64,000 bases of DNA from positions 1,612,001-1,676,000 of the forward strand of contig JBBELK010000052.1 in the NCBI GenBank assembly GCA_037783545.1, given 5' to 3'. The notes beneath the pieces were generated by a model that had not been told where the DNA came from, made no database searches, and worked only from the letters and a program-made list of their open reading frames with translations. The stretch's first letter is position 1, and each line of letters begins with the position of its first letter. Shown here piece by piece: positions 1 to 51,831 of the stretch. The position numbers and the translations under genes were made by a program. The DNA is from Henricia sp. BOLD:AAB3569. Lineage: Eukaryota > Echinodermata > Asteroidea > Spinulosida > Echinasteridae.

Positions 1-18878
<18,878 letters not shown>

Positions 18879-26421: not shown

Positions 26422-26683
26422 CTATTGTTCAAATCGGCTAAAACCTTTTAATTAAAAAAATCAAACAGTGATATGAAGTGCAGAGCCATTTCCTATATAT
26501 GCAACTGACAAAGATTGACGTAATAACTTCGGCTTTTCACTGGCACACCAATTTTGAAAATGACAGAAAAGCCAATCATGTATATAGACCCTATTCACCA
26601 GTGGCCATGACAGGAGGCAGGTTTTCCAATTTGAGCGACCTTGGACAGTCACGTGATATTTCAATTAACTCCAGGTACCACCT

Positions 26684-27115
26684 ATGGTGACGAATTTCAT
26701 TACGCTTTAGTTTGCCCTTACTTTAATAAGGATCATACTCATGTGAAGAAATATTACTGGAACAGACCAAGCATGCTGAAGTATGATCAGTTATTTAATG
26801 TACAGAGTAATACACAGTTAACCAGTCTTGCAAAATGTCTAAAAATAATTATGTCTAAATTTCTCTAAATATTTCTTTTGTTTATTTAGTAGACTTGTAT
26901 TTGACACAAACTTGCCATTTTATAAATACAATTACATGTAAATATACTTCACTTTGTCAAAGTTTAATCTCGTATTTAGTTATCTAGTGTTTACAAATTA
27001 GTTTACCGTTAGTTAATAGTATTGTTTATGCTGTATTTAACTGTATTGTTAGCTCTCATATACCCTGGTCGGGGTCGTAGAGTTGAATAAACCAACCAAC
27101 CAACCAACCAACCAA
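26684..27115 (+). mobile_element. 5'-truncated non-LTR retrotransposon (LINE) 3' end with AACC tail
   Basis: The sequence interrupts lectin unit 1 between CCAGGTACCACCT and CTCTGCTGAGGAG, which are contiguous in units 2 and 3. It begins within the last part of a reverse-transcriptase reading frame (GDEFHYALVCPYFNKDH, then KYYWNRPSMLKYDQL and LAKCLKIIM, then a stop), a pattern common at the C terminus of CR1/Rex-like LINEs. It ends AGTTGAATAAACCAACC with about seven AACC repeats. Dead on arrival by truncation. The exact clade is uncertain. Confidence 0.75.
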
Positions 27116-27117
27116 CC
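27083..27117 (+). repeat. (AACC)n microsatellite
   Basis: About seven AACC units forming the LINE tail. Confidence 0.9.
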
Positions 27118-27674
27118 TCTGCTGAGGAGCGTGCCGTTTGTGGGTATGGCCAAATTAGTTCTCGGTAGCGACCGACGACAAAATTTACACAATGTGACAA
27201 ATTAAGCGTTAAGCGGGGTCATAGCAACCGCACGCACATCGATTACCATTTTCGTGCCGTCTCCCATTATTATTTCGTAGGCAAAGGTTTAATTTATATA
27301 TATATTTTTTTAATTTGTTATTTGTTGGGGTGTCACTTGCAAGGAACGCCGTCTATATGATCGGAGATACATTATGCAGCCGTTTGTAATACGCAGTTAC
27401 TATACTAAAATGGCATTTGGGAGTACGAAGTAACGAGAACCGTCGGTAAAACCACCATATACAAGAGTATTGCCACAGTCCAGATAGACAGCAACATTTT
27501 TAATCCAGTGTCGTTTCTTGTGAAGGAAAATTTTCAAAACTGCTTCTAGCCTCAACTGAGGAAATCCTTTTTTTCCCGTTGGTTGGATTAGCCGTATTTA
27601 ATACGAGCATTTTACAAGTATAATTACGGATTGTACCTTTTCAAGTCAAGATTGTTCACTGTGAAAACACCACA

Positions 27675-28391
27675 ATGATCAGCTACTACGTCAGCATTGT
27701 TATCGCGTTGCTTCATCTGCGTCAGATCATCTCGCTGCAGAGTTTTCCCATGTGCCCACCCGGATGGCTACTGGCTGGCAAGTCCTGCTGGTTGGCCGTT
27801 CCTGACGAGCTCAACAAAATCCAAGCCCAGGAGAAGTGTCAACAGATGAACGGCAACTTGCCTGTTCCTAACTCAAAAGCCGAGAACGACTTTCTTTTCA
27901 GGTTCTTTAAAGAGTCCTGGCCAAATGCAAGGAGAAGTTTGTGGCTGGGATGTACCACTGCACCAGCCAACAACATGCTTGTGTGTCCTGAGGGTACGTG
28001 CCTTGGATACCATCCGCATGTCATCAAATCAGGCAACCCCGATGAAAGCTGTTTGTTGATGAGTAAAAATAACGGTTGGTTCGAAAGTGACTGTCATCAG
28101 TGGAGGCAAACCATATGCCAGCGCCCTGCCTTGAGATTTGCCTCAACCCTTCTGTGCTCTGCTGTCCACACCGGAAGCTACTGCCTACAGGACCACACCA
28201 TCTCAACCACTCAGACCAAAACCCCCATGCAGTGCTGTCTTGCCTGCTTCAAGGATCCCAAGTGCCACTCCTTCAACCTATCATGGGAGACGTGCCAGCT
28301 CAACAATGTTACCATCTCGCAGGTAGATCAAGGCAAGCACCTAGACCGAGCACATCAGCATTGCGGTTATTTTGAAATGAACTGGGTTTAA
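27675..28391 (+). CDS. Secreted C-type lectin-like plus PAN/apple-like protein, copy 1
   Basis: A single open exon of 238 residues. The N terminus (MISYYVSIVIALLHLRQI) looks like a signal peptide. A C-type lectin-like domain follows, about residues 25-150: it opens with MCPPGWLLAGKSCW, has the core WLGC and ends with ESDCHQWRQTICQ. Residues about 155-238 resemble a PAN/apple module: LLCSAVHTGSYC, then CCLACFKDPKCHSFNLS and CQLNN, ending in CGYFEMNWV. The calcium/sugar motifs EPN and WND are not present in normal form (WFESDC stands where a WND motif would be), so sugar binding is uncertain. AATAAA lies at 28551-28556, about 160 nt after the stop. Such proteins are usually secreted recognition or adhesion factors; a role in immunity is inference. 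It is the first of three tandem copies and looks intact. A non-coding upstream exon cannot be excluded. Confidence 0.82.
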   Translation: MISYYVSIVIALLHLRQIISLQSFPMCPPGWLLAGKSCWLAVPDELNKIQAQEKCQQMNGNLPVPNSKAENDFLFRFFKESWPNARRSLWLGCTTAPANNMLVCPEGTCLGYHPHVIKSGNPDESCLLMSKNNGWFESDCHQWRQTICQRPALRFASTLLCSAVHTGSYCLQDHTISTTQTKTPMQCCLACFKDPKCHSFNLSWETCQLNNVTISQVDQGKHLDRAHQHCGYFEMNWV

Positions 28392-28550
28392 GAATTCGCA
28401 TTATGTGTCGTTATTGGCGTTGGTGGCCTCCTTTGGATAAAGGGATTTGTTTCTTTGACGAAACAGACTTGAGTATTGTTGTGCAGAAGTGTTAAACTCA
28501 ATGGCTTCTGTCAAGTGTTGAACGCATAGTAGGTGTTACAAATTTCTGGG

Positions 28551-28556
28551 AATAAA
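28551..28556 (+). promoter_or_regulatory. Poly(A) signal, lectin copy 1
   Basis: AATAAA within a block conserved in all three units (GAACGCATAG then AATTTCTGGGAATAAA). Copy 2 keeps AATAAA at 33293-33298; copy 3 has ATTAAA at 38083-38088. Confidence 0.6.
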
Positions 28557-28914
28557 AATTAAACTGTTCGTATATTGAGTATTACACATGTATACGTGTG
28601 GACATAGTGGGCATGTATAAAGTCAGTGTACCTGAAAGTTGAATTTATCGAAATATATTGACTGTCACAATGTTTAGTCCGTTTAGGCGGATTTTTTGTT
28701 TTAGGTTTGTGTGTGCTTTGTAGAAGTTAGTTTCGTTTATTTTTGGAAACAGTTCAGCCTATTATAATTGTACTGGTGTAATGTCTTAACTTTGAAAGTT
28801 AAAACAACCTGCGCTCAACACTGTTAGTTAGGCTTTCTGTGAATGAAACTGTTCGTATACATTTTTTGAGACATTGACAAAAGTCTAGTTATGTTGTGCC
28901 CTAGTTCTAGTTAT

Positions 28915-29142
28915 GTTGTAGTCGAGTCCATCACAAGTCTATCGCAAGATAGACTTAACATATCCACCACAAGTCCCTGGGTCTTATTTCAAGTCACAAG
29001 CTTTTCAAATGAACTCCATGCTTGCAACACAGGCATTCTTTTGTGCGTGTTCATCCTTTGCTTCTTGTAACTGGACTTATGACGGACTTGTGCGGGACTT
29101 GTGATTTTATCGGCCAAGGACTTGTGATGGACTCGACTACAA
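28915..29142. mobile_element. CGAGTCC foldback element in lectin unit 1
   Basis: Ends GTTGTAGTCGAGTCCATCAC / GTGATGGACTCGACTACAA, inner ACAAGTCC repeats. Unit 2 has the empty site (GGTCTAGTTATTGTATAGATG, 35702-35724); unit 3 has the element at 38390-38915. Confidence 0.75.
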
Positions 29143-29654
29143 TTTTATGCATGTAATTATTTATTCACGCGAGCGTATTTTAGCATGTATTTTTAAATCG
29201 CACCACCATCAACTGTGTTTTACAACAGCAAATTATTGACCAAATGAAAGTTGAGAGGAAATGTGAACATTAAAGCCCCATACATTATTTGCAGCTACCC
29301 AAAAATGTTACTTTACGAGTTGACAAGAAAAAAAACGACCAAAAGTGTTGATAGCAATGGTAACAAACACCACATGAATTTTTTTCCCGCGTAAAATTGT
29401 ATACCTTTGTGGGAGAAAGTTTTAAAAAGTTGTCTGCAGACACAACTTTTTTACCATTCATTTATACACAAATAACATGCATGGATTTTTTTCAGGTTTT
29501 CTAAAGGTATTACTGCATCTTTATTTGGCTACAATTTATACAAGGCAGTTTTCTCCACATGGGCTTTTAATTACGAGTGGAAATAACGACGTTTTTAACA
29601 GTTTACCAATCATGTATATCTATCTTTAAACCGAGACTCTTGGCACAGTTATAT

Positions 29655-29799
29655 AGACCGTATCGAATAGCTGCCATCTTGTGGGGCATTTTTTGTTACT
29701 TAAACTGTTCAACGATGTAAGCACAATATGTGCAACCATGCATGTCCTCAAGGAAAAAAGAAACTGCCCCACAAGATTGCGGCTCTTCGATATACGGTA
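29655..29799. mobile_element. Palindromic MITE, AGACCGTATCGAATAGC family
   Basis: 145 bp with arms AGACCGTATCGAATAGC and GCTCTTCGATATACGGTAC; centre CATGCATG. Copies at 57001-57143 and 61014-61157. Confidence 0.7.
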
Positions 29800-29894
29800 C
29801 ATAGGCAGCTACTCTGAGCTGTGAATGTCAGTGATGTTACGCCCTCTGGTTTATTTTAAAACCAATTTTTTTCTTGATGTTGCAGGGCACAGTA

Positions 29895-30162
29895 TAGACT
29901 GGTCCCCTGTCCACATATTTACTCCCCCTGTGTCACAGTTTGGAAGAAAGTAGTGCTGCTGCAATTTCATTACACAACGCTTTATACGAAATTGCACTAC
30001 ATTCTTCTAAGCGCACTTGGCGCTTGCGCAAACTGTGACACAGCCCCGTTAATTTGCATAAACCTCCAGGTATTCCTGGATATTTATGCCAAACATGGCG
30101 GCGTGTACCTGTCCTCATATACGACGAAGGGGAAGTAAATATGAGGACAGGGGACCAGTTTA
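29895..30162. mobile_element. TAGACTGGTCCCC element with 9-bp duplication
   Basis: 268 bp; ends TAGACTGGTCCCCTGTCC / GGACAGGGGACCAGTTTA; GGCACAGTA repeated on both sides (29886-29894, 30163-30171). Unit 2 keeps the empty site (CAGGGCAAAGTATGGAATAG). Related fragments at 19109-19215 and 21755-21865. Confidence 0.85.
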
Positions 30163-31067
30163 GGCACAGTATGGAATAGAATATTTGGTATGACGAGATA
30201 TCAGTTTTTAATTTAGCATTCTGAGATGTCTTTATATTAAGTTCCCTATTAAATTTGCACATTTACGTGTATTCTATTGTGTATACAAGCCGATTACCAA
30301 TTTGGACGATCATACTTTTGTTCCAAAAACATATCCTGTAGCCAACACCGTCTTGTATGGTGATTAGCCTAGTCCATGCAGTGTATTTTCAAACACATAT
30401 GAACTGAAATGAATTATGTTGTAATGATTCCCTATGGGGTCTGGCTCTGACCCAGTCATATCTTTCACAAAGAAATAGCCATCTTTAACCCTTCAAAATG
30501 TTCTTGACAAGCGTGGACTCTGTTCACTTCTTGGACACTGTATTTCAAAGAACAGCAGTAGCCCACTAATCCATTTTTACTCAATACATTAAGGAAATTG
30601 TTGCAAATGACATACTAAACAAACCAAGCAAACCAATAGGGCCTACATTTCATCATAATCAAGAATCCACAGAAATGTACACCAACGTTTGTATACACAA
30701 GTCTATAGAGAATTCCTCTGTTAGTTTGCAACTGAAACACTGATAGTTTGCAACTTTGCGGTACTCTCTGTGTTTGTTGCGATGATATGGAAAACCAGGC
30801 TTGAGAACTGTGTTCAGATTGCGATCGTTACGAGAAAAAAAACCCACGAAAGACACAGCTAAATCCTATTTTTTCCCCATGCATGATAGCCTAAAATTTA
30901 GACAGATAAGTGGTAGACATATACATAAACCTCACAGCTTATTATATAACTTGGGATGAGAGAAAAATTGTAAGGGCCTTTTCGGGATTCGACCCAGAGA
31001 CCTCTGACTCACCGGGCAGGTCCGCGGGTTCGAAGCCCTGTAAGGCCCTTGCGATTTTCCTTTCATC

Positions 31068-31182
31068 CAGTGACGGATCCAGCCTTATTAAAATACAGGA
31101 ATACAATGTATCTCAGGGAGCTGTAGCCCCCGCTTTCCCTTTGTATTCCTGTTTTTAATGAGGCTGGATCCGCTACTGTCAT
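31068..31182. mobile_element. Palindromic MITE, GCGGATCCAGCC type
   Basis: AGTGACGGATCCAGCCTTAT at the left and AATGAGGCTGGATCCGCTAC at the right; arms AATACAGGAATACAA and complement. It interrupts a family C SINE (head about 30970-31055, tail 31183-31230). Confidence 0.65.
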
Positions 31183-32225
31183 CCCAAGTTTGGTTATTTA
31201 ATTTCAACGGTGATTAGGCACCATGCCAGATAATGCGTTCGTTAGCTTATAATATCACTAAAACTGACGAATATACACTCCAGAAACACAAACACAATTT
31301 TATGAAAATATTAATTATTGATCAGAACATTGAACTCTTCTGCATGGAGAATGAAATAGCTCATCATTAGGCAACTGCTCGAATTCGGAGCCGTAGTCGA
31401 AAATTAAAAGTCATCCAAAGAAACATAGGGTTGTCATGGTAATTGACTCTAAATATTGAGTCTTTGGCTAAAACCTTTCATTAAAAAAGAAAACAGTGAT
31501 AGGCTACTCTTTAAGTGCAGAGTCGTTTCCTAGGCAACTGACAAAAGAACTTCAGCTCCTCGATCACTGGCATACCAATTTTGAAAATGATAGAAAAGCC
31601 AAACATGTACATGTATATAGACCCTCTGCACCAGTGGCCATGACAGGATGCATGTTTTCAGATTTGATCGACGGAGAGCCATGCACGGTCACGTGATATT
31701 TCAATTAACTCCAGGTACCACCTCTGCTAAGGAGTGTGCATTGTGTGTGGGTATCATGGCCAAATTCATTCTCAGTAGAGACCGATTATTAAGCGTTAAA
31801 CGGCGCGCACATCGATTACCATTTTCATGCCGTCTCCTATTATTATTTTCTAGGCAGGCCGTTCTAATTTAAGTTAGAAGCTTTCTTTTTTGTTGAAAAT
31901 TTGGGTCACTCGCAAGGAACGCCGTCTATAGCAGTCTGAGATACATTATGAAGCCGTTTGTGATGACCGAATAAATACGCAGTTACCAACATTGCATTTG
32001 GGAGTATACGAAGTAGCGTGACAAGCTAACGATTGGCGTAAATCCACCACACGAGAGTATTGCCACAGTCCAGACAGCAACATTTTAAATCCAGTGTCGT
32101 TTCTTGTGAAGACAAATTCAGAACGGCTCCTCAAAGGAAATATTTTCCCGCCGTATTTAACACAAGCATTTATATTACGAATTATACCTTTTCAAGTCAA
32201 GATTGTTCACTGTGAAAACGCCACA

Positions 32226-32951
32226 ATGATCAGCTACGTCAGCATTGTTCTCGCGTTGCTTCATCTGCGTCAGATCAGCTCGCTGCTGCAGAATTTTCCA
32301 ATGTGCCCACCCGGATGGGTACTGAGTGGCCAGTCCTGCTGGTTGGCCGTTCCTGGCCAGTTCAACAAAATCCAAGCCCAGGAGAAGTGCCAGCAGGTGA
32401 ACGGTAACTTGCCAGTTCCGAACTCTGAGGCCGAGAATGACTTCCTCACAAGGTTGCACAGAAAGTCCTGGCCAAATGCAGAGAGAAGTGCCTGGCTAGG
32501 TTGTACCATTGAACCACCAAATGACATGATCAGGTGTCTTCGTGGTACATACCTTGGGTTCCATCCGCGAATCGTCGCATGGGCTATCCCCACAGATCGG
32601 TGTCTGTTCTTCAGGAAACAGGGCACTAGCGACTGGTTCGTCAGTGACTGCGACCGCTGGAGGCACACCATATGCCAGCGCCCTGCCTTAAGATTTGCCT
32701 CGGCCCTTCTGTGCTCTGCTGTCCACACCGGAAGATACTGCCTACTGGACCACACCATCTTAACCACTCAGACCAAGACCGGCACCATGCAGTGTTGTCT
32801 TGCCTGCTTCAAGGATCCCAAGTGCCACTCTTTCAACCTGTCAGGGGAGACGTGCCAACTCAACAATGTCACCATATCTCAGGTAGATCAAGGCAAGCAC
32901 CTAGACCGAACATGCCAGGATTGCAGTTACTTTGAAATTAAGTGGGCTTAA
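32226..32951 (+). CDS. Secreted C-type lectin-like plus PAN/apple-like protein, copy 2
   Basis: 241 residues, single exon, same architecture as copy 1: signal peptide MISYVSIVLALLHLRQI, lectin-like domain (MCPPGWVLSGQSCW, SAWLGCTIEPPNDM, FVSDCDRWRHTICQ), then the PAN/apple-like module (CCLACFKDPKCHSFNLSGE, CQLNN). The frame is open upstream to 32094, but I chose the ATG at 32226 because it matches the copy 1 start and directly precedes the signal peptide. The 5' context (CACTGTGAAAACGCCACA before ATG) is shared by all copies. Poly(A) signal AATAAA at 33293-33298. The lectin-like domain differs from copy 1 at many residues, including charge changes around the variable loop, while the PAN part is better conserved. 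The 3' flank is interrupted from 33323 by a 2 kb inverted-repeat element. Confidence 0.82.
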   Translation: MISYVSIVLALLHLRQISSLLQNFPMCPPGWVLSGQSCWLAVPGQFNKIQAQEKCQQVNGNLPVPNSEAENDFLTRLHRKSWPNAERSAWLGCTIEPPNDMIRCLRGTYLGFHPRIVAWAIPTDRCLFFRKQGTSDWFVSDCDRWRHTICQRPALRFASALLCSAVHTGRYCLLDHTILTTQTKTGTMQCCLACFKDPKCHSFNLSGETCQLNNVTISQVDQGKHLDRTCQDCSYFEIKWA

Positions 32952-33473
32952 GATTTGGTTTTGGTAAGAGTTGAGAAGTTGATTAAATGTGTTTTCCTTT
33001 CAAATGACTCATCAAGCATCGGTAATTGCAGATATGATGGAAAAACCCAACTTTTTGAGTGGGAAAAAATTAAGATTTTGTGAGGAAACAAAATGTTCAG
33101 CCTGTCATATATTTGTTTCTTCGACGCAACAGACTTGAGTAGGCCTAATGGTTGTACTCACATATTTCAATAACACAGTCGTTTCCTATCTTGTTGTTAA
33201 TAGAAATCTGTAGTTGTACTGAAGTGTTAAATTCAATATTATGGCTTCCATCTAAAGTGCTGAACGCATAGCAGATGTCATACATTTCTGTGAATAAAAA
33301 CGCAACTCTTCGTATAGTATTAGGGGCCGTCCATAAAGGACCTACGCATGGAATGATGACTTTTTAGAACACCCTCCCCCCTACGCATGGCGTACGCAGT
33401 GGCTCCAACCACCCCCCCCCCCCCTCCCCACCCCCTCCCCTGTACGCATACGCATTCCATATATACCTGGGTA

Positions 33474-34951
33474 TGGTGCCCTCACACAATAGCGATCACC
33501 AGTTGCGTATGGTTGCGAATAAAAAATAGTGTCATAAAAAAAACACGCAACTAATAGGTTTTATAGGTTTGAAGTACGCAACAACCACGCAGGTGATCGC
33601 AGACACACGCAGACTAAGTTCAGAAATTTTGAACATGTTCAATAATTCTCTGCGAATGCCTGCGATCAATTTATACGCAACAGGGACGCAACAGGTACGC
33701 TACGCACGCAACACGATCGCAACACGATCGCAACAGGTACGCAACTCATAAGTTATGAACGCAGGTGATCGCAGGTCCAAATTTGAGGTATCTGGCCAGG
33801 TTTTGGTATAGCGTACAAGTTGCGAATGTGTTGCGTACCTGTTGCGATCATGTTGCGTGTGTAGCGTACCCCCAACCTATTGTGCGTATTCCCAGCATAT
33901 CACCAACCTATGCCCTGCGTATCCAACCTATTAGTTGCGTGTGAGTTGCGTGTTAGTTGCGTACTACATGCGTGTTGAGAAATGGTATAAATGTGGGCCT
34001 TTTCTAGATCGGTGTCAATTGTTGATGGACCTCCGAGGTGACCACATGAAGATACCTCTTGCTGTTATTGGACATCAGTTTAATCTGGTCAATTTAGCAC
34101 TACAACGCAACTAGCACGCAGGTCCAACGCAACTTGTAAGTTTTAAACGCAACTCAAATCCAACTCGTAAGTTCTGCACGCAACTCACACGCAACTCGCA
34201 CGCAACTAGTACGCAGGTATTGGGGGATCATAAGTAATTCAGTTCGCAACCCGCCCGCAACCCACCATCCTCTTGCAACAGTGCCCCTTTAACGCACTCC
34301 CTAACTCCTGCGTACAGTGGCCCTGTTGAAAAAGGCCCCATTTGGCGGTGGGACTAGCGACAGAAATCTTGTCGCCTCTGCTGGACCAATCAGGACGCTT
34401 GCAGTGCATTGCAGCACGATTGCAGGCATTCAAATGTAACGCGCGCAGATTGTAAACACCGTGCATGCATGTGATACATGTACTCGGTAATGCTGGCCGT
34501 TGTCTGCGTCGGCGATTGGCTGCTATTTAAAGCATACTGGGGAATCCGTTCCATATTACATTCGTCAGCATGCATCCCTGTTATTAATGTGAACAACTCC
34601 GGAGTAAATAAGGTTCGTCGTTTAAAGGTTTGGTAGGAATGGGACAGTCATAAGGAACGGAACCAAATACAATTTCTGGAAAGTATAGAAATTGTTTCTT
34701 TTCGGCATAACATGACCGAATTAATTAAATTACATCAAAATGACTCGGGCGTGAGTTGGCTCAAGACAACAGCCGGCTCGCTCCCAACCCATACGCAACC
34801 CACACGCAACTCACACGCAACCCATAGGTTGAATAGGTTAGAAATTGACAAAATTGTTGATTTGGGTTGCGTTTGGTGCGTATACAATTGTTTTTTTTTT
34901 TACACGCAACTCGTAGGTCTTAGCATACGCTATGGTGTGAGAGCACCATAA
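33474..34951. mobile_element. ACGCAAC-rich foldback element
   Basis: Ends ATGGTGCCCTCACACAATAG / complement of TATGGTGTGAGAGCACCAT. Between them are dozens of ACGCAAC or GTTGCGT units, in mixed orientation, at 33500-34265 and 34788-34930, often alternating with CAGGTACGC, CACGATCGC or ATAGGTT. A CATCCT element (34266-34783) is inserted in the middle. Confidence 0.7.
34266..34783 (+). mobile_element. CATCCT element, copy without its right end
   Basis: Matches 43292-43885 from CATCCTCTTGCAACAGTGCC to CAGCCGGCTCGCTCC, then switches to the ACGCAAC-rich sequence of the surrounding element. The last about 95 bp are missing. Confidence 0.8.
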
Positions 34952-37185
34952 ATGGTTCAGTATATAGGCATGTAGTGCTATACACGTACCGGTGTACACT
35001 ACTAGTACGATTCGCATGTCGCCTCCAAAGTCTGAAATAAATGAGATTTATTTTGCATTTGTTTAAACTTAAAATGACATCAAGCATCAGTAACTGCAGA
35101 TTTAATGGAAAAACCTAATTTGAGGAGTGAGAAAAATGTGAGATGTGTGAGAAAAATGTGTGGCCTGTCTAATATGTTTTGTACATAAGGTCTAAAGCCA
35201 TGGTCAACTTGTCCATCATTTCCCGATTTACTAAAAGCAGATTTTCGATTTGCGTACATATGCATTAGCTTGGACCCCTCTCTCCCCCTCCCCCACCCCC
35301 TGTACGCATGGTGTACGGAATGTCAACAACAACCCCACCCCTCCCCCTCCGTGCGTACGTACTTTATGGACGGCCCCTTATCTGTGGAATTAGTGGGCAT
35401 ATAGTGGACATAGTAAGTTTACTTGAATGTTGATTTTATCGAAATTTGTTGAGATATTGACAATGTTTAGTCCGTTTGGGCAGACATTTTGTTTTAGACT
35501 TTTGTGTGCATTGTGGCCTTAAGGCGTAGTTTAATATAAGTTAGCTTCGTTTAATTTGCGAAACAGTTCAGCCTTATAGTTTTACTGGTGTCTTAACTTT
35601 GAAAGTTAAAACCATGCGCTCATTAACACTGTTAGTTAGGCTTTCTGTGAATCAAACTGTTCGCATACAGAGTGATGTGGCATTTTTGAGACATTGACAA
35701 AGGTCTAGTTATTGTATAGATGTAATTATTTATTCACACTCGCGTATTTTAGCATGTATTTTGAAATCGCACCACGATATTAATTGTGTTGTACAATAGC
35801 AAAATATTGACCAAATGAAAATTGAGAGGAAATGTGAACATTAAAGCCCAATACATAATTGGCAATTACCCAAACTTTTACTTCACGAGTTGATAAAAGA
35901 AAAAAAAGACAGCAATGGAAACAAACACCACGTGATCCAAAATTCCCTCTTGATGTTGCAGGGCAAAGTATGGAATAGAATATTTGGTATGACGAGCTCA
36001 GTTTTTAATTTAGCATTCTGAGATGTCTTTATATTAAGTTTCCTATTAAATTTGCACATTTACATGTATTCTATTGTGTACAAGCCTATTGCCAATTTAG
36101 ACGATCATGCTTTTGTTCCAAAAACATATCCAAGCTAGCACTGTCTTGTATGGTGATTATTTTAGTCCATGCAGTGTATTTTTAATTCTGTTGTAAAGAT
36201 TATCCTATAGGGTCTGGATCTGACCCAGTCCTATCTTTCACAAAGAAATAATAATCTTTAACCCTTCAACATGTTCTTCACAAGCGTGCATGCGCTCTGT
36301 TCACTTCATGGATGGACCATATCGTTAAAGACAACTTTATAAAAGACACTATACATTTCAAAAGAACAACAGTAGCCTACTAACCCATTTTGACTCAGCA
36401 CATTAAGGAAATTGTTGCAAATGACATACTAAACAAAACTTTTCATAAAAAAGCAAACAGTGATACTCTTTAAGTGCAGAATCGTTTTCTATAGGCAACT
36501 GACGAAACTTCGGCTCCTCGATCACTGGCACACCAATTTTAAAAATGATAGAAAAGCCAAACATGTACATGTATATACACCCTCTGCACCAGTGGCCATG
36601 ACAGGAGGCATATTTTCAGATATGATCGACGGAGAGCCATGCACGGTCACGTGATATTTTAATTAACTCCAGGTACCACCTCTGCTAAGGAGTGTGCATT
36701 GTGTGTGGGTATATCATGGCCAAATTCATTCTCAGTAGAGACCGATTATTAAGCGTTAAACGGCGCGCACATCGATTACCATTTTCATGCCGTCTCCCAT
36801 TATTATTTTCTAGGCAGGCCGTTCTAATTTAAGTTAGAAGCTTTCTTTTTTGTTGAAAATTTGGGTCACTCGCAAGGAACGCCGTCTATAGCAGTCTGAG
36901 ATACATTATGAAGCCGTTTGTGATGACCGAATAAATACGCAGTTACCAACATTGCATTTGGGAGTATACGAAGTAGCGTGACAAGCTAACGATTGGCGTA
37001 AATCCACCACACGAGAGTATTGCCACAGTCCAGAGAGCAACATTTTAAATCCAGTGTCGTTTCTTGTGAAGACAAATTCAGAACGGCTCCTCAAAGGAAA
37101 TATTTTCCCGCCGTATTTAACACAAGCATTTATATTACGAATTATACCTTTTCAAGTCAAGATTGTTCACTGTGAAAACGCCACA

Positions 37186-37915
37186 ATGATCAGCTACGTC
37201 AGCATTGTTCTCGCGTTGCTTCATCTGCGTCAGATCAGCTCGCTGCTGCAGAATTTTCCAATGTGCCCACCCGGATGGGTACTGAGTGGCCAGTCCTGCT
37301 GGTTGGCCGTTCCTGGCCAGTTCAACAAAATCCAAGCCCAGGAGAAGTGCCAGCAGGTGAACGGTAACTTGCCAGTTCCGAACTCTGAGGCCGAGAATGA
37401 CTTCCTCACAAGGTTGCACAGAAAGTCCTGGCCAAATGCAGAGAGAATTGCCTGGCTAGGTTGTACCATTGAACCACCAAATGACATGATCAGGTGTCTT
37501 CGTATGTGGTACATACCTTGGGTTCCATCCGCGAATCGTCGCATGGGTTATCCCCACAGATCGGTGTCTGTTCTTCAGGAAACAGGGCACTAGCGACTTG
37601 TTCGTCAGTGACTGCGACCGCTGGAGGCACACCATATGCCAGCGCCCTGCCTTAAGATTTGCCTCGGCCCTTCTGTGCTCTGCTGTCCACACCGGAAGAT
37701 ACTGCCTACTGGACCACACCATCTTAACCACTCAGACCAAGACCGGCACCATGCAGTGTTGTCTTGCCTGCTTCAAGGATCCCAAGTGCCACTCTTTCAA
37801 CCTGTCAGGGGAGACGTGCCAACTCAACAATGTCACCATCTCGCAGGTAGATCAAGGCAAGCACCTAGACCGAGCACACCAAGATTGCGGTTATTTTGAA
37901 ATGAACTGGGTTTAA
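37186..37915 (+). pseudogene. Lectin-like/PAN copy 3, frameshifted
   Basis: Almost identical to copy 2 from well upstream of the ATG to about 37820. It has 4 extra bases (ATGT) after the codon for Arg at about 37504, so the frame shifts in the middle of the lectin-like domain and reading ends about 30 codons later. The rest of the domain and the full PAN-like part lie in another frame (37598-37915). A Trp in the copy 2 motif DWFVSDC is Leu here. The last 80 bp and the 3' flank follow copy 1 rather than copy 2 (ends EMNWV, as in copy 1). The poly(A) signal is the ATTAAA variant at 38083-38088. Either this is a recent pseudogene or the 4 bp are an assembly error; the sequence alone cannot decide. 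Confidence 0.78.
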
Positions 37916-38389
37916 CAATTCGATTTTATGTGTCGTTATTGGCGTTGGTGGCCTCCTTTGGATAAAGTGATTTGTTTCTTTGACAAAACAGACTTGAGTA
38001 TATAGTTGTGCTGAAGTGTTAAACTCAATGGCTTCTACCGAAAGTGTTGAACGCATATAGTGGATGTTATAAATTTCTGTGAATTAAAATGAAACTCTTC
38101 GTATTGAGTATTTACCTGTGGACATATATAGTGGGCATGTATAAAATCCGTTTACCTGTGAGTAAAATTTATCGAAATATATTGACAATGTTTAGTCCGT
38201 TTAGGCGGATTTTTTTGTTTTAGGTTTTGGTGTGCATTGTGGCTTTGAGGCGTACTTTATTATAAGTTCAAATAAGCCCAACATTGTTAGTTAGGCTTTC
38301 TGTGAATGAAACCGTTCGTATGTACAGATGATATGTGATGCCTGGACATTTTTGAGACATCGACAGAGGTCTAGTTATGTTGTGCCAGG

Positions 38390-38915
38390 GTTGTAGTCGA
38401 GTCCATCACAAGTCCACCGCAAGTCCCTGGGTCTTAAAGGTACACACCGGCCTACTGTTTACATGATTTAGTGATGTAGCAGCATTGACAATACTTTTTT
38501 GACTTATAAATATTGGGGGGAAATCAGAGTTGAATTTGATGCAGTTCTGCAGTAAGAAACTTTCATGCGGCTGGACACAAAACTAACTCGCAAGACCATG
38601 TGACTTTTCGGAACCAGAATCTGGTTCCGAAACGTCACGTGACCTTGAATTTTTGAAAAATGCTCAAAAACGGTCAAATTTTACGGCGTCTTTTCAGGAT
38701 ATATCTAATTTACTCTGGAAATCGCTTCAGAATAATGTATGCATTTCGAGCCCAAAATAGCCCAACAAAGCCGGTGTGTCCCTTTAATTCAGCTATATTC
38801 AAATGAACTCAAACAAAGGTACTATTTTGTGCGTGTTTATCCTTTGCTTCTTGTTACTGGACTTATGACGGACTTGTGCTTTTATCGGCCGGACTTGTGA
38901 TGGACTCGACTACAA
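38390..38915. mobile_element. CGAGTCC foldback element in lectin unit 3, interrupted
   Basis: Same ends as 28915-29142; carries the TTAA element 38438-38783 inside. Its presence in units 1 and 3 but not 2 is a marker for the history of the array. Confidence 0.75.
38438..38783. mobile_element. Inverted-repeat element, ACACACCGGC ends, TTAA target
   Basis: 346 bp, ends AGGTACACACCGGCC / GCCGGTGTGTCCCT, TTAA on both sides. Inserted in the 3' flank of lectin unit 3; unit 1 has the empty site (GTCCCTGGGTCTTATTTCAAG). It is itself nested in the CGAGTCC foldback element at 38390-38915. Confidence 0.85.
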
Positions 38916-39518
38916 TTTTATGCATGTAATTATTTATTCACGCGAGCGTATTTTAGCATGTATTTTAAAATCGCACCACGATCAACTGTGTTTTAAAACA
39001 GCAAAATATTGACCAAATGAAAGTTGAGAGGAAATACATTATTTGCATTTACCAAAAATTTTACAAACATCACATGATTTTTTTTCCGTGAAAAACTGTA
39101 CCTTTGCGGGAGAAATTGCTAATTAAAAGTGTTTTTTCTTTAAGTTGTCTGCAGACAACTTTGTTACCACTTATTCATACACAAAAACCATGCATGGATT
39201 TTTCAGGTTTTTTTTCTACAAGGCGGTTTATCAACATGTTATACATGTACTGTTTTCCAACCACGTACATGTAATACACCTATCAATTGTTTTCCCCACC
39301 CCTCCCCGCCCCCCGCGCTGCCCCACCCCTAAGTGGGGTTTGGTCACGTTTTTCATGCCCCAGGGTGGGGCTTTTGGCCCATTTTCTGTGCATTTTTTGC
39401 GCATGTTTTGCACCCGAGGGTGGGGATTTTTGTCACCTAAATGTTGCCCCAGGGGTGGGGATTTTGTCACGCAAAAAGTGACAATCTCCACCTTTTAGGC
39501 GGGGTAGCCCGGGGAGTG

Positions 39519-39870: not shown

Positions 39871-51831
<11,961 letters not shown>

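What the first reader, a model, noticed from the sequence alone, without database searches (positions are those of the whole stretch)
37186..39240. Third lectin unit is a mosaic of copies 2 and 1
From about 36450 to about 37820, unit 3 is almost identical to unit 2. Between about 37822 and 37846 it switches: CACCATCTCGCAG as in copy 1 (copy 2 has CACCATATCTCAG), the C-terminal EMNWV of copy 1, its 3' UTR start (TGTGTCGTTATTGGCGTTGG) and the CGAGTCC element that copy 2 lacks. This shows unequal crossing-over or gene conversion with a breakpoint inside the PAN-like domain.
Basis: seen in the sequence. Interest (0 to 1): 0.72.

Follow-up and report, generated by a model that had tools for sequence, protein, structure and literature searches.

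The report
Gene-conversion mosaic in tandem lectin genes
Three neighbouring lectin-like genes in an echinoderm genome have exchanged sequence: about 1.2 kb of the third copy matches the second almost perfectly while its tail is a different, older version, and a four-base insertion breaks that third copy, which is a clean but ordinary case of gene conversion between duplicates.

Summary
The mosaic is real. Unit 3 matches unit 2 at 36661-37839 with 5 substitutions in 1173 aligned sites and 2 small indels, then switches to the unit-1 type between 37834 and 37840. (1) The near-identity also has a LEFT edge, at about 36623-36679; further left units 2 and 3 differ at 58 of 655 sites. The tract is two-ended, which fits gene conversion better than a single unequal crossover. 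(2) After the switch unit 3 still differs from unit 1 at 64 of 633 sites (summed), so the tail was not freshly taken from copy 1. It is best read as unit 3's own old tail, with unit 2 the likelier donor of the body; direction is only moderately supported. (3) A 4-base insertion at 37502-37505 shifts the frame inside the lectin domain, so front and EMNWV end are in different frames. The 'CGAGTCC element' is an arm of a dispersed inverted-repeat element. The family is large (133 matches, some several per copy), and other copies show possible exchange. A new instance of a known process; low to moderate interest.

The parts
26440..30623 (+). unit 1 with its downstream spacer (intact 238-aa C-type lectin + PAN-like gene, CDS 27675-28391)
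30624..31469 (.). 846-base stretch before unit 2 that has no match before unit 3; holds an about 110-base dispersed repeat (31066-31178)
31470..36437 (+). unit 2 with its downstream spacer (intact 241-aa gene, CDS 32226-32951)
31703..32875 (+). unit-2 side of the conversion tract (likelier donor)
36435..39211 (+). unit 3 (mosaic; gene broken by a frameshift)
36661..37839 (+). conversion tract in unit 3: 5 substitutions in 1173 aligned sites and 2 indels against unit 2; left edge within 36623-36679, right edge between 37834 and 37840
37502..37505 (+). 4-base insertion that shifts the frame inside the C-type lectin domain; it completes a 6-bp inverted repeat with a 3-base loop
37186..37593 (+). 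open frame left from the unit-3 start codon: 135 codons and a stop, lectin domain cut short
37490..37915 (+). second open frame (141 codons) with the rest of the lectin domain, the PAN-like part and EMNWV; out of frame with the first
37840..38378 (+). tail of unit 3 (end of CDS, 3' UTR, spacer), of the unit-1 type but about 10% diverged from it
28915..29142 (.). the same inverted-repeat element in unit 1; missing from unit 2 at about 35711

Best explanation
Three head-to-tail copies of a secreted-looking C-type lectin/PAN-like gene with one uninterrupted frame arose by older tandem duplication. Later, interlocus gene conversion (non-reciprocal copying during repair of a break in one copy on the template of its neighbour) replaced about 1.2 kb of unit 3, from the 5' noncoding part to the middle of the PAN-like part, with unit 2's sequence. 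Unit 3 kept its own older, unit-1-type tail and its own left flank. Unit 3 then took a 4-base insertion, probably by a template switch at an imperfect palindrome, which shifted its frame: it is now most likely a pseudogene. Shown: the tract, both edges, the frameshift, the flanking differences. Inferred: the mechanism, the direction (unit 2 to unit 3), the order of events, secretion, the absence of introns.
For: Two edges: inside 36661-37839, 5 of 1173 sites differ between units 2 and 3; in the left flank 35962-36660, 58 of 655 (Fisher 2.4e-21); noncoding sites alone inside the tract 2 of 523 against the same flank (2.4e-13). Right edge: 1 of 199 against 64 of 81. Right of the tract, units 1 and 3 share an inverted-repeat insertion that unit 2 lacks, and spacer b favours 1+3 at 15 sites against 3 and 4. 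Direction: the noncoding difference of units 1 and 3 is 95 of 499 in the tract and 89 of 765 outside (p 3e-4), as if the tract were foreign to unit 3. Of the 5 tract substitutions, unit 3 alone is changed at 3, unit 2 alone at 1, and at 1 all three differ. The 4-base insertion gives the hairpin GTATGT-GGT-ACATAC; 3 of 256 4-mers at that point give a stem as long.
Against: Direction is weak: units 1 and 2 show a like rise inside the tract when the doubtful 3' UTR alignment of unit 2 is left out (95 of 499 against 87 of 659, p 0.007), though not when it is kept (159 of 860, p 0.83). Left of the tract units 2 and 3 are also each other's closest (18 sites against 6 and 10), and spacer a is ambiguous (19, 20 and 7 sites), so there was probably more than one event. 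The tract is long: passages of PMC3924818 give most means as 50 to several hundred bp, with one rodent data set above 1 kb, and say that conversion is much rarer at about 80% identity; overlapping events are possible. The hairpin test was thought of after seeing the insertion. No reads were available.
Confidence: 0.68

Rival explanations
1. Gene conversion in the reverse direction: unit 3's body was copied into unit 2, before unit 3 was broken.
For: The tract edges are equally well explained. Across the right edge the unit 1-unit 3 difference stays low (14 of 185 before, 3 of 73 after) while unit 1-unit 2 rises (14 of 185 to 12 of 73).
Against: The C-terminal end is more divergent in comparisons with other copies too (for example unit 1 with the copy at C52:1416717, identity 165 of 183 before and 56 of 72 after), so the rise for unit 2 is what an unexchanged pair would show. 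The noncoding difference of units 1 and 3 is higher in the tract than outside it.
Confidence: 0.2
2. A single unequal crossing-over between misaligned units made a fused unit 3.
For: Tandem, same-orientation units of 4-5 kb make it possible; the right edge alone would look like this.
Against: A crossover would bring unit 2's left flank along. It did not: 58 mismatches in 655 sites, and the 846-base stretch before unit 2 is absent. With a two-unit start the fused unit would lie between the parents, not at the end (inference).
Confidence: 0.07
3. Assembly artefact: a haplotype switch or misjoin inside the 1.2-kb near-identical stretch.
For: The stretch is 99.6% alike, and the assembly does hold artefacts: the same mitochondrial match lies three times on contig C955 and once on C2104.
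Against: Units 2 and 3 lie on one contig of 2.93 Mb with distinct flanks and carry differences inside the stretch. No second copy of the locus appeared among the candidates scored (150 of 314, 40 of 7442).
Confidence: 0.05

Closest known systems
Sp185/333 (SpTransformer) immune gene clusters of the purple sea urchin (PMC5103432 and PMC1988830, passages read; PMC5491942, start of abstract in the listing)
   Same: Clustered, similar, small echinoderm genes for which the authors propose gene conversion, recombination and mispairing; hybrid genes predicted.
   Different: Not lectins; two exons; flanked by short tandem repeats; the authors report almost no pseudogenes, whereas unit 3 here is broken.
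GOT1 paralogs of the copepod Tigriopus californicus (PMC3728101; abstract read)
   Same: Conversion between duplicates leaves a mosaic of high- and low-divergence stretches; in a second gene pair conversion has not kept each copy functional everywhere.
   Different: An enzyme gene, shown with population samples; here a single assembly.
Quasipalindrome template-switch mutations (PMC7202029, PMC3820800, PMC8604942; search listing with start of abstract)
   Same: A mutation that makes the arms of an imperfect inverted repeat more alike.
   Different: Here a single case, with no replication assay.

Membership tests
Interlocus gene conversion tract | stretch of near-identity between paralogs, bounded on both sides by ordinary divergence | tested here: met
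   5 of 1173 inside and 58 of 655 on the left; 11 of 73 in the tail coding part on the right
Interlocus gene conversion tract | flanks of the recipient unchanged (no exchange of flanking markers) | tested here: met
   left flank and tail of unit 3 differ from unit 2; the 846-base stretch is absent
Interlocus gene conversion tract | non-reciprocal transfer with known donor | tested here: inconclusive
   unit 2 to unit 3 favoured, but regional rate differences confound it
Unequal crossing-over product | one breakpoint, with everything on one side taken from the other copy | tested here: not met
   second edge at 36623-36679
C-type lectin domain gene (Pfam PF00059) | match above the curated cut-off | tested here: met
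   unit 1 42.4 bits, unit 2 31.3 bits, first frame of unit 3 25.1 bits over less than half the profile, cut-off 22.6
PAN domain (Pfam PF14295, PF00024) | match above the curated cut-off | tested here: not met
   PAN_4 20.6 (unit 1), 16.4 (unit 2) and 18.6 (second frame of unit 3) against 27; PAN_1 18.5 against 21.4, in unit 1 only
Functional lectin gene (unit 3) | one open frame from signal peptide to C-terminus | tested here: not met
   stop after 135 codons; the rest is in another frame

The most novel reading that the evidence does not exclude
A large C-type lectin/PAN-like family in this echinoderm is kept diverse by repeated short exchanges between copies, also between copies 222 kb apart on opposite strands (unit 1, codons 86-121 in unit-2 numbering, follows the copy at C52:1416717), so that lectin domains are shuffled by germline conversion, as proposed for Sp185/333.
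Probability: 0.3. Interest if true: 0.45.

Novelty: new member of a known kind. Interest (0 to 1): 0.2.

Why it matters
It is a sharply bounded, fairly recent conversion tract with both edges, a broken copy and intact neighbours, in a lectin family of an echinoderm. It offers a test of whether conversion spreads or repairs lectin variants, as has been proposed for sea-urchin immune genes. By itself it is an ordinary event in tandem duplicates.

Tried and rejected
Single crossover: rejected as a one-event history by the left edge. Copy 1 as a recent donor of the tail: rejected by 64 differences in 633 sites (summed). Another haplotype of the locus in the assembly: none among the candidates scored (150 of 314; 40 of 7442). 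Direction by distance alone: left open; I left unit 2's 3' UTR out of the unit 1-unit 2 figure because 32960-33110 is partly not homologous, and one search gives both versions. Reading the CGAGTCC element as a part of the lectin units: rejected, it is the arm of an element with 39 other places among the 40 candidates scored of 1715. Whether the 846-base stretch before unit 2 was gained there or lost before unit 3 was not settled. Domain-wise synonymous rates of units 1 and 2 are uneven (0.51 in the lectin domain, 0.22 in the PAN-like part before the switch, 0.06 in the signal peptide), on small counts. Literature: gene conversion + C-type lectin + tandem duplic + echinoderm gave 1 paper, on big defensins; C-type lectin + PAN domain + sea star gave 0; gene conversion + lectin + sea urchin + gene family gave 20, 12 listed; C-type lectin + expansion + sea star genome gave 0. 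The family-wide run test was made on four clusters picked by eye from the list, with open frames of at least 220 aa only (27 frames); column shuffles do not allow for uneven rates or selection, so it is suggestive only. Eight other open frames of the window were scanned against Pfam; 1 of 8 matched.

Full report
What was checked. Self-comparison of the window shows three head-to-tail units on the + strand: unit 1 from about 26440, unit 2 from about 31470 and unit 3 from 36435. Units 1 and 2 each hold one uninterrupted gene (238 and 241 aa) with a C-type lectin domain above Pfam's cut-off and a PAN-like part below it.

The mosaic. Aligned base by base, units 3 and 2 differ at 5 of 1173 aligned sites and two small indels over 36661-37839. 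A two-part fit to the sites of types 2=3 and 1=3 in 36661-38121 puts the break there with a log-likelihood gain of 104: 1 of 199 sites of the 1=3 type on the left and 64 of 81 on the right.

The second edge. Left of the tract the similarity of units 2 and 3 falls: a fit places the change at 36623 (2-lnL range 36623-36679), with 57 mismatches of 617 on the left and 6 of 1211 on the right. Noncoding sites alone show it: 2 of 523 inside, 58 of 655 in the flank. The 846 bases that precede unit 2 (30624-31469) have no match before unit 3. A single unequal crossover would have carried unit 2's left flank along, so gene conversion is the simpler reading. The length, about 1.2 kb, is above most estimates of mean tract length (50 to several hundred bp; one rodent data set above 1 kb; passages of PMC3924818), so overlapping events are possible.

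The tail. After the switch unit 3 differs from unit 1 at 3 of 73 (coding), 25 of 202 (3' UTR), 28 of 212 and 8 of 146 (spacers) sites, 64 of 633 in all. That is far more than 5 of 1173 in the body, so this tail was not freshly copied from unit 1. Units 1 and 3 share the inverted-repeat insertion whose arm holds CGAGTCC; unit 2 lacks it at about 35711. The element is dispersed in the genome (39 other places among the 40 candidates scored), and in unit 3 a further dispersed repeat sits inside it (38502-38788). Not all blocks agree: spacer a gives 19 sites for 1+3, 20 for 1+2 and 7 for 2+3, and 36435-36677 favours 2+3 (18 against 6 and 10). The array has therefore probably seen more than one exchange.

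Direction. If unit 2 was the donor, the tract should be foreign to unit 3. The noncoding difference of units 1 and 3 is 95 of 499 inside and 89 of 765 outside (p 3e-4). Units 1 and 2 show a weaker rise of the same kind when unit 2's doubtful 3' UTR is left out (87 of 659 outside, p 0.007) and none when it is kept (159 of 860, p 0.83). I favour unit 2 to unit 3 and do not regard it as shown.

The broken frame. Unit 3 has four extra bases at 37502-37505. Its frame from the start codon ends after 135 codons; the rest of the lectin domain, the PAN-like part and the EMNWV end lie in another frame. The insertion makes a perfect 6-bp inverted repeat with a 3-base loop, where unit 2 has a best stem of 3; 3 of 256 four-base words at this point would reach that length. 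This resembles quasipalindrome template switching (PMC7202029 and PMC3820800, search listing and start of abstract). The three coding substitutions in the tract all change an amino acid (S to I, A to V, W to L). Unit 3 is most likely a pseudogene, so the chimera is of historical and not of protein interest, unless the four bases are one allele only or an error.

Surroundings. The genome held is 740.7 Mb in 2104 contigs, and the window is C52:1612001-1676000. Its mitochondrial COX1 reads as expected with AAA as Asn and AGA as Ser (judged by eye on recalled motifs), which is the echinoderm code (recalled). The mitochondrial matches on C955 repeat every 16,221 bases. A frame that I recognise as ND1 lies on the opposite strand before COX1, which fits the 4.6-kb inversion of starfish against sea urchins (passage of PMC3308324, which also groups brittle stars with starfish in gene order). 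Hence an echinoderm, probably a sea star; the species is not known. The lectin query has 133 matches at E 0.001 or better in this genome (150 of 314 candidates scored; some copies give several matches, unit 3 among them), many in single open frames.

Wider mosaicism. The copy at C52:1416717-1417418, 222 kb away on the other strand, shares a stretch of the lectin domain with unit 1 (unit-2 codons 86-121). There 31 of the 32 sites at which unit 1 agrees with just one of the two follow that copy and not unit 2; sites where unit 2 and that copy agree against unit 1 were left out; 0 of 500 shuffles reach this. Synonymous differences there are 4 of 24.5 sites, against 17 of 36.3 just before it. In four other clusters, 22 of 81 pairs of copies have a shared run longer than in each of 300 column shuffles. 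Such tests do not allow for uneven constraint, so I take this as a lead, not a result.

Verdict. The best explanation is gene conversion in tandem duplicates, with a frameshift in one copy. This is a known kind of event, and conversion has been proposed in echinoderm gene clusters before, for Sp185/333 (passages of PMC5103432 and PMC1988830).

Noticed in passing
window 27930-28036 (unit 1; unit-2 codons 86-121) and L025 (C52:1416717-1417418, minus strand): Unit 1 shares a lectin-domain stretch with a copy 222 kb away (31 of 32 deciding sites against unit 2), while their signal peptides agree at only 33 of 75 bases: a possible second, ectopic exchange.
   Followed up: partly
whole genome; clusters on C69, C164, C293, C46 (L038-L051): Large family of C-type lectin/PAN-like genes with single open frames (133 matches), in clusters with signs of exchange (22 of 81 pairs). 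If introns are truly lacking, an old retrocopy may have been the founder (inference).
   Followed up: partly
window 41909-42217: Exon of galactose-1-phosphate uridylyltransferase (PF01087, 59.5 bits) downstream of the array.
   Followed up: no
window 31066-31178: About 110-base repeat that matches on both strands (near-palindromic), with dozens of places in the genome, inside the 846-base stretch before unit 2.
   Followed up: no
C955 (matches at 7592, 23813, 40034) and C2104: The mitochondrial COX1 match appears three times at a spacing of 16,221 bases on contig C955 and again on C2104: a probable assembly artefact of a circular molecule.
   Followed up: no
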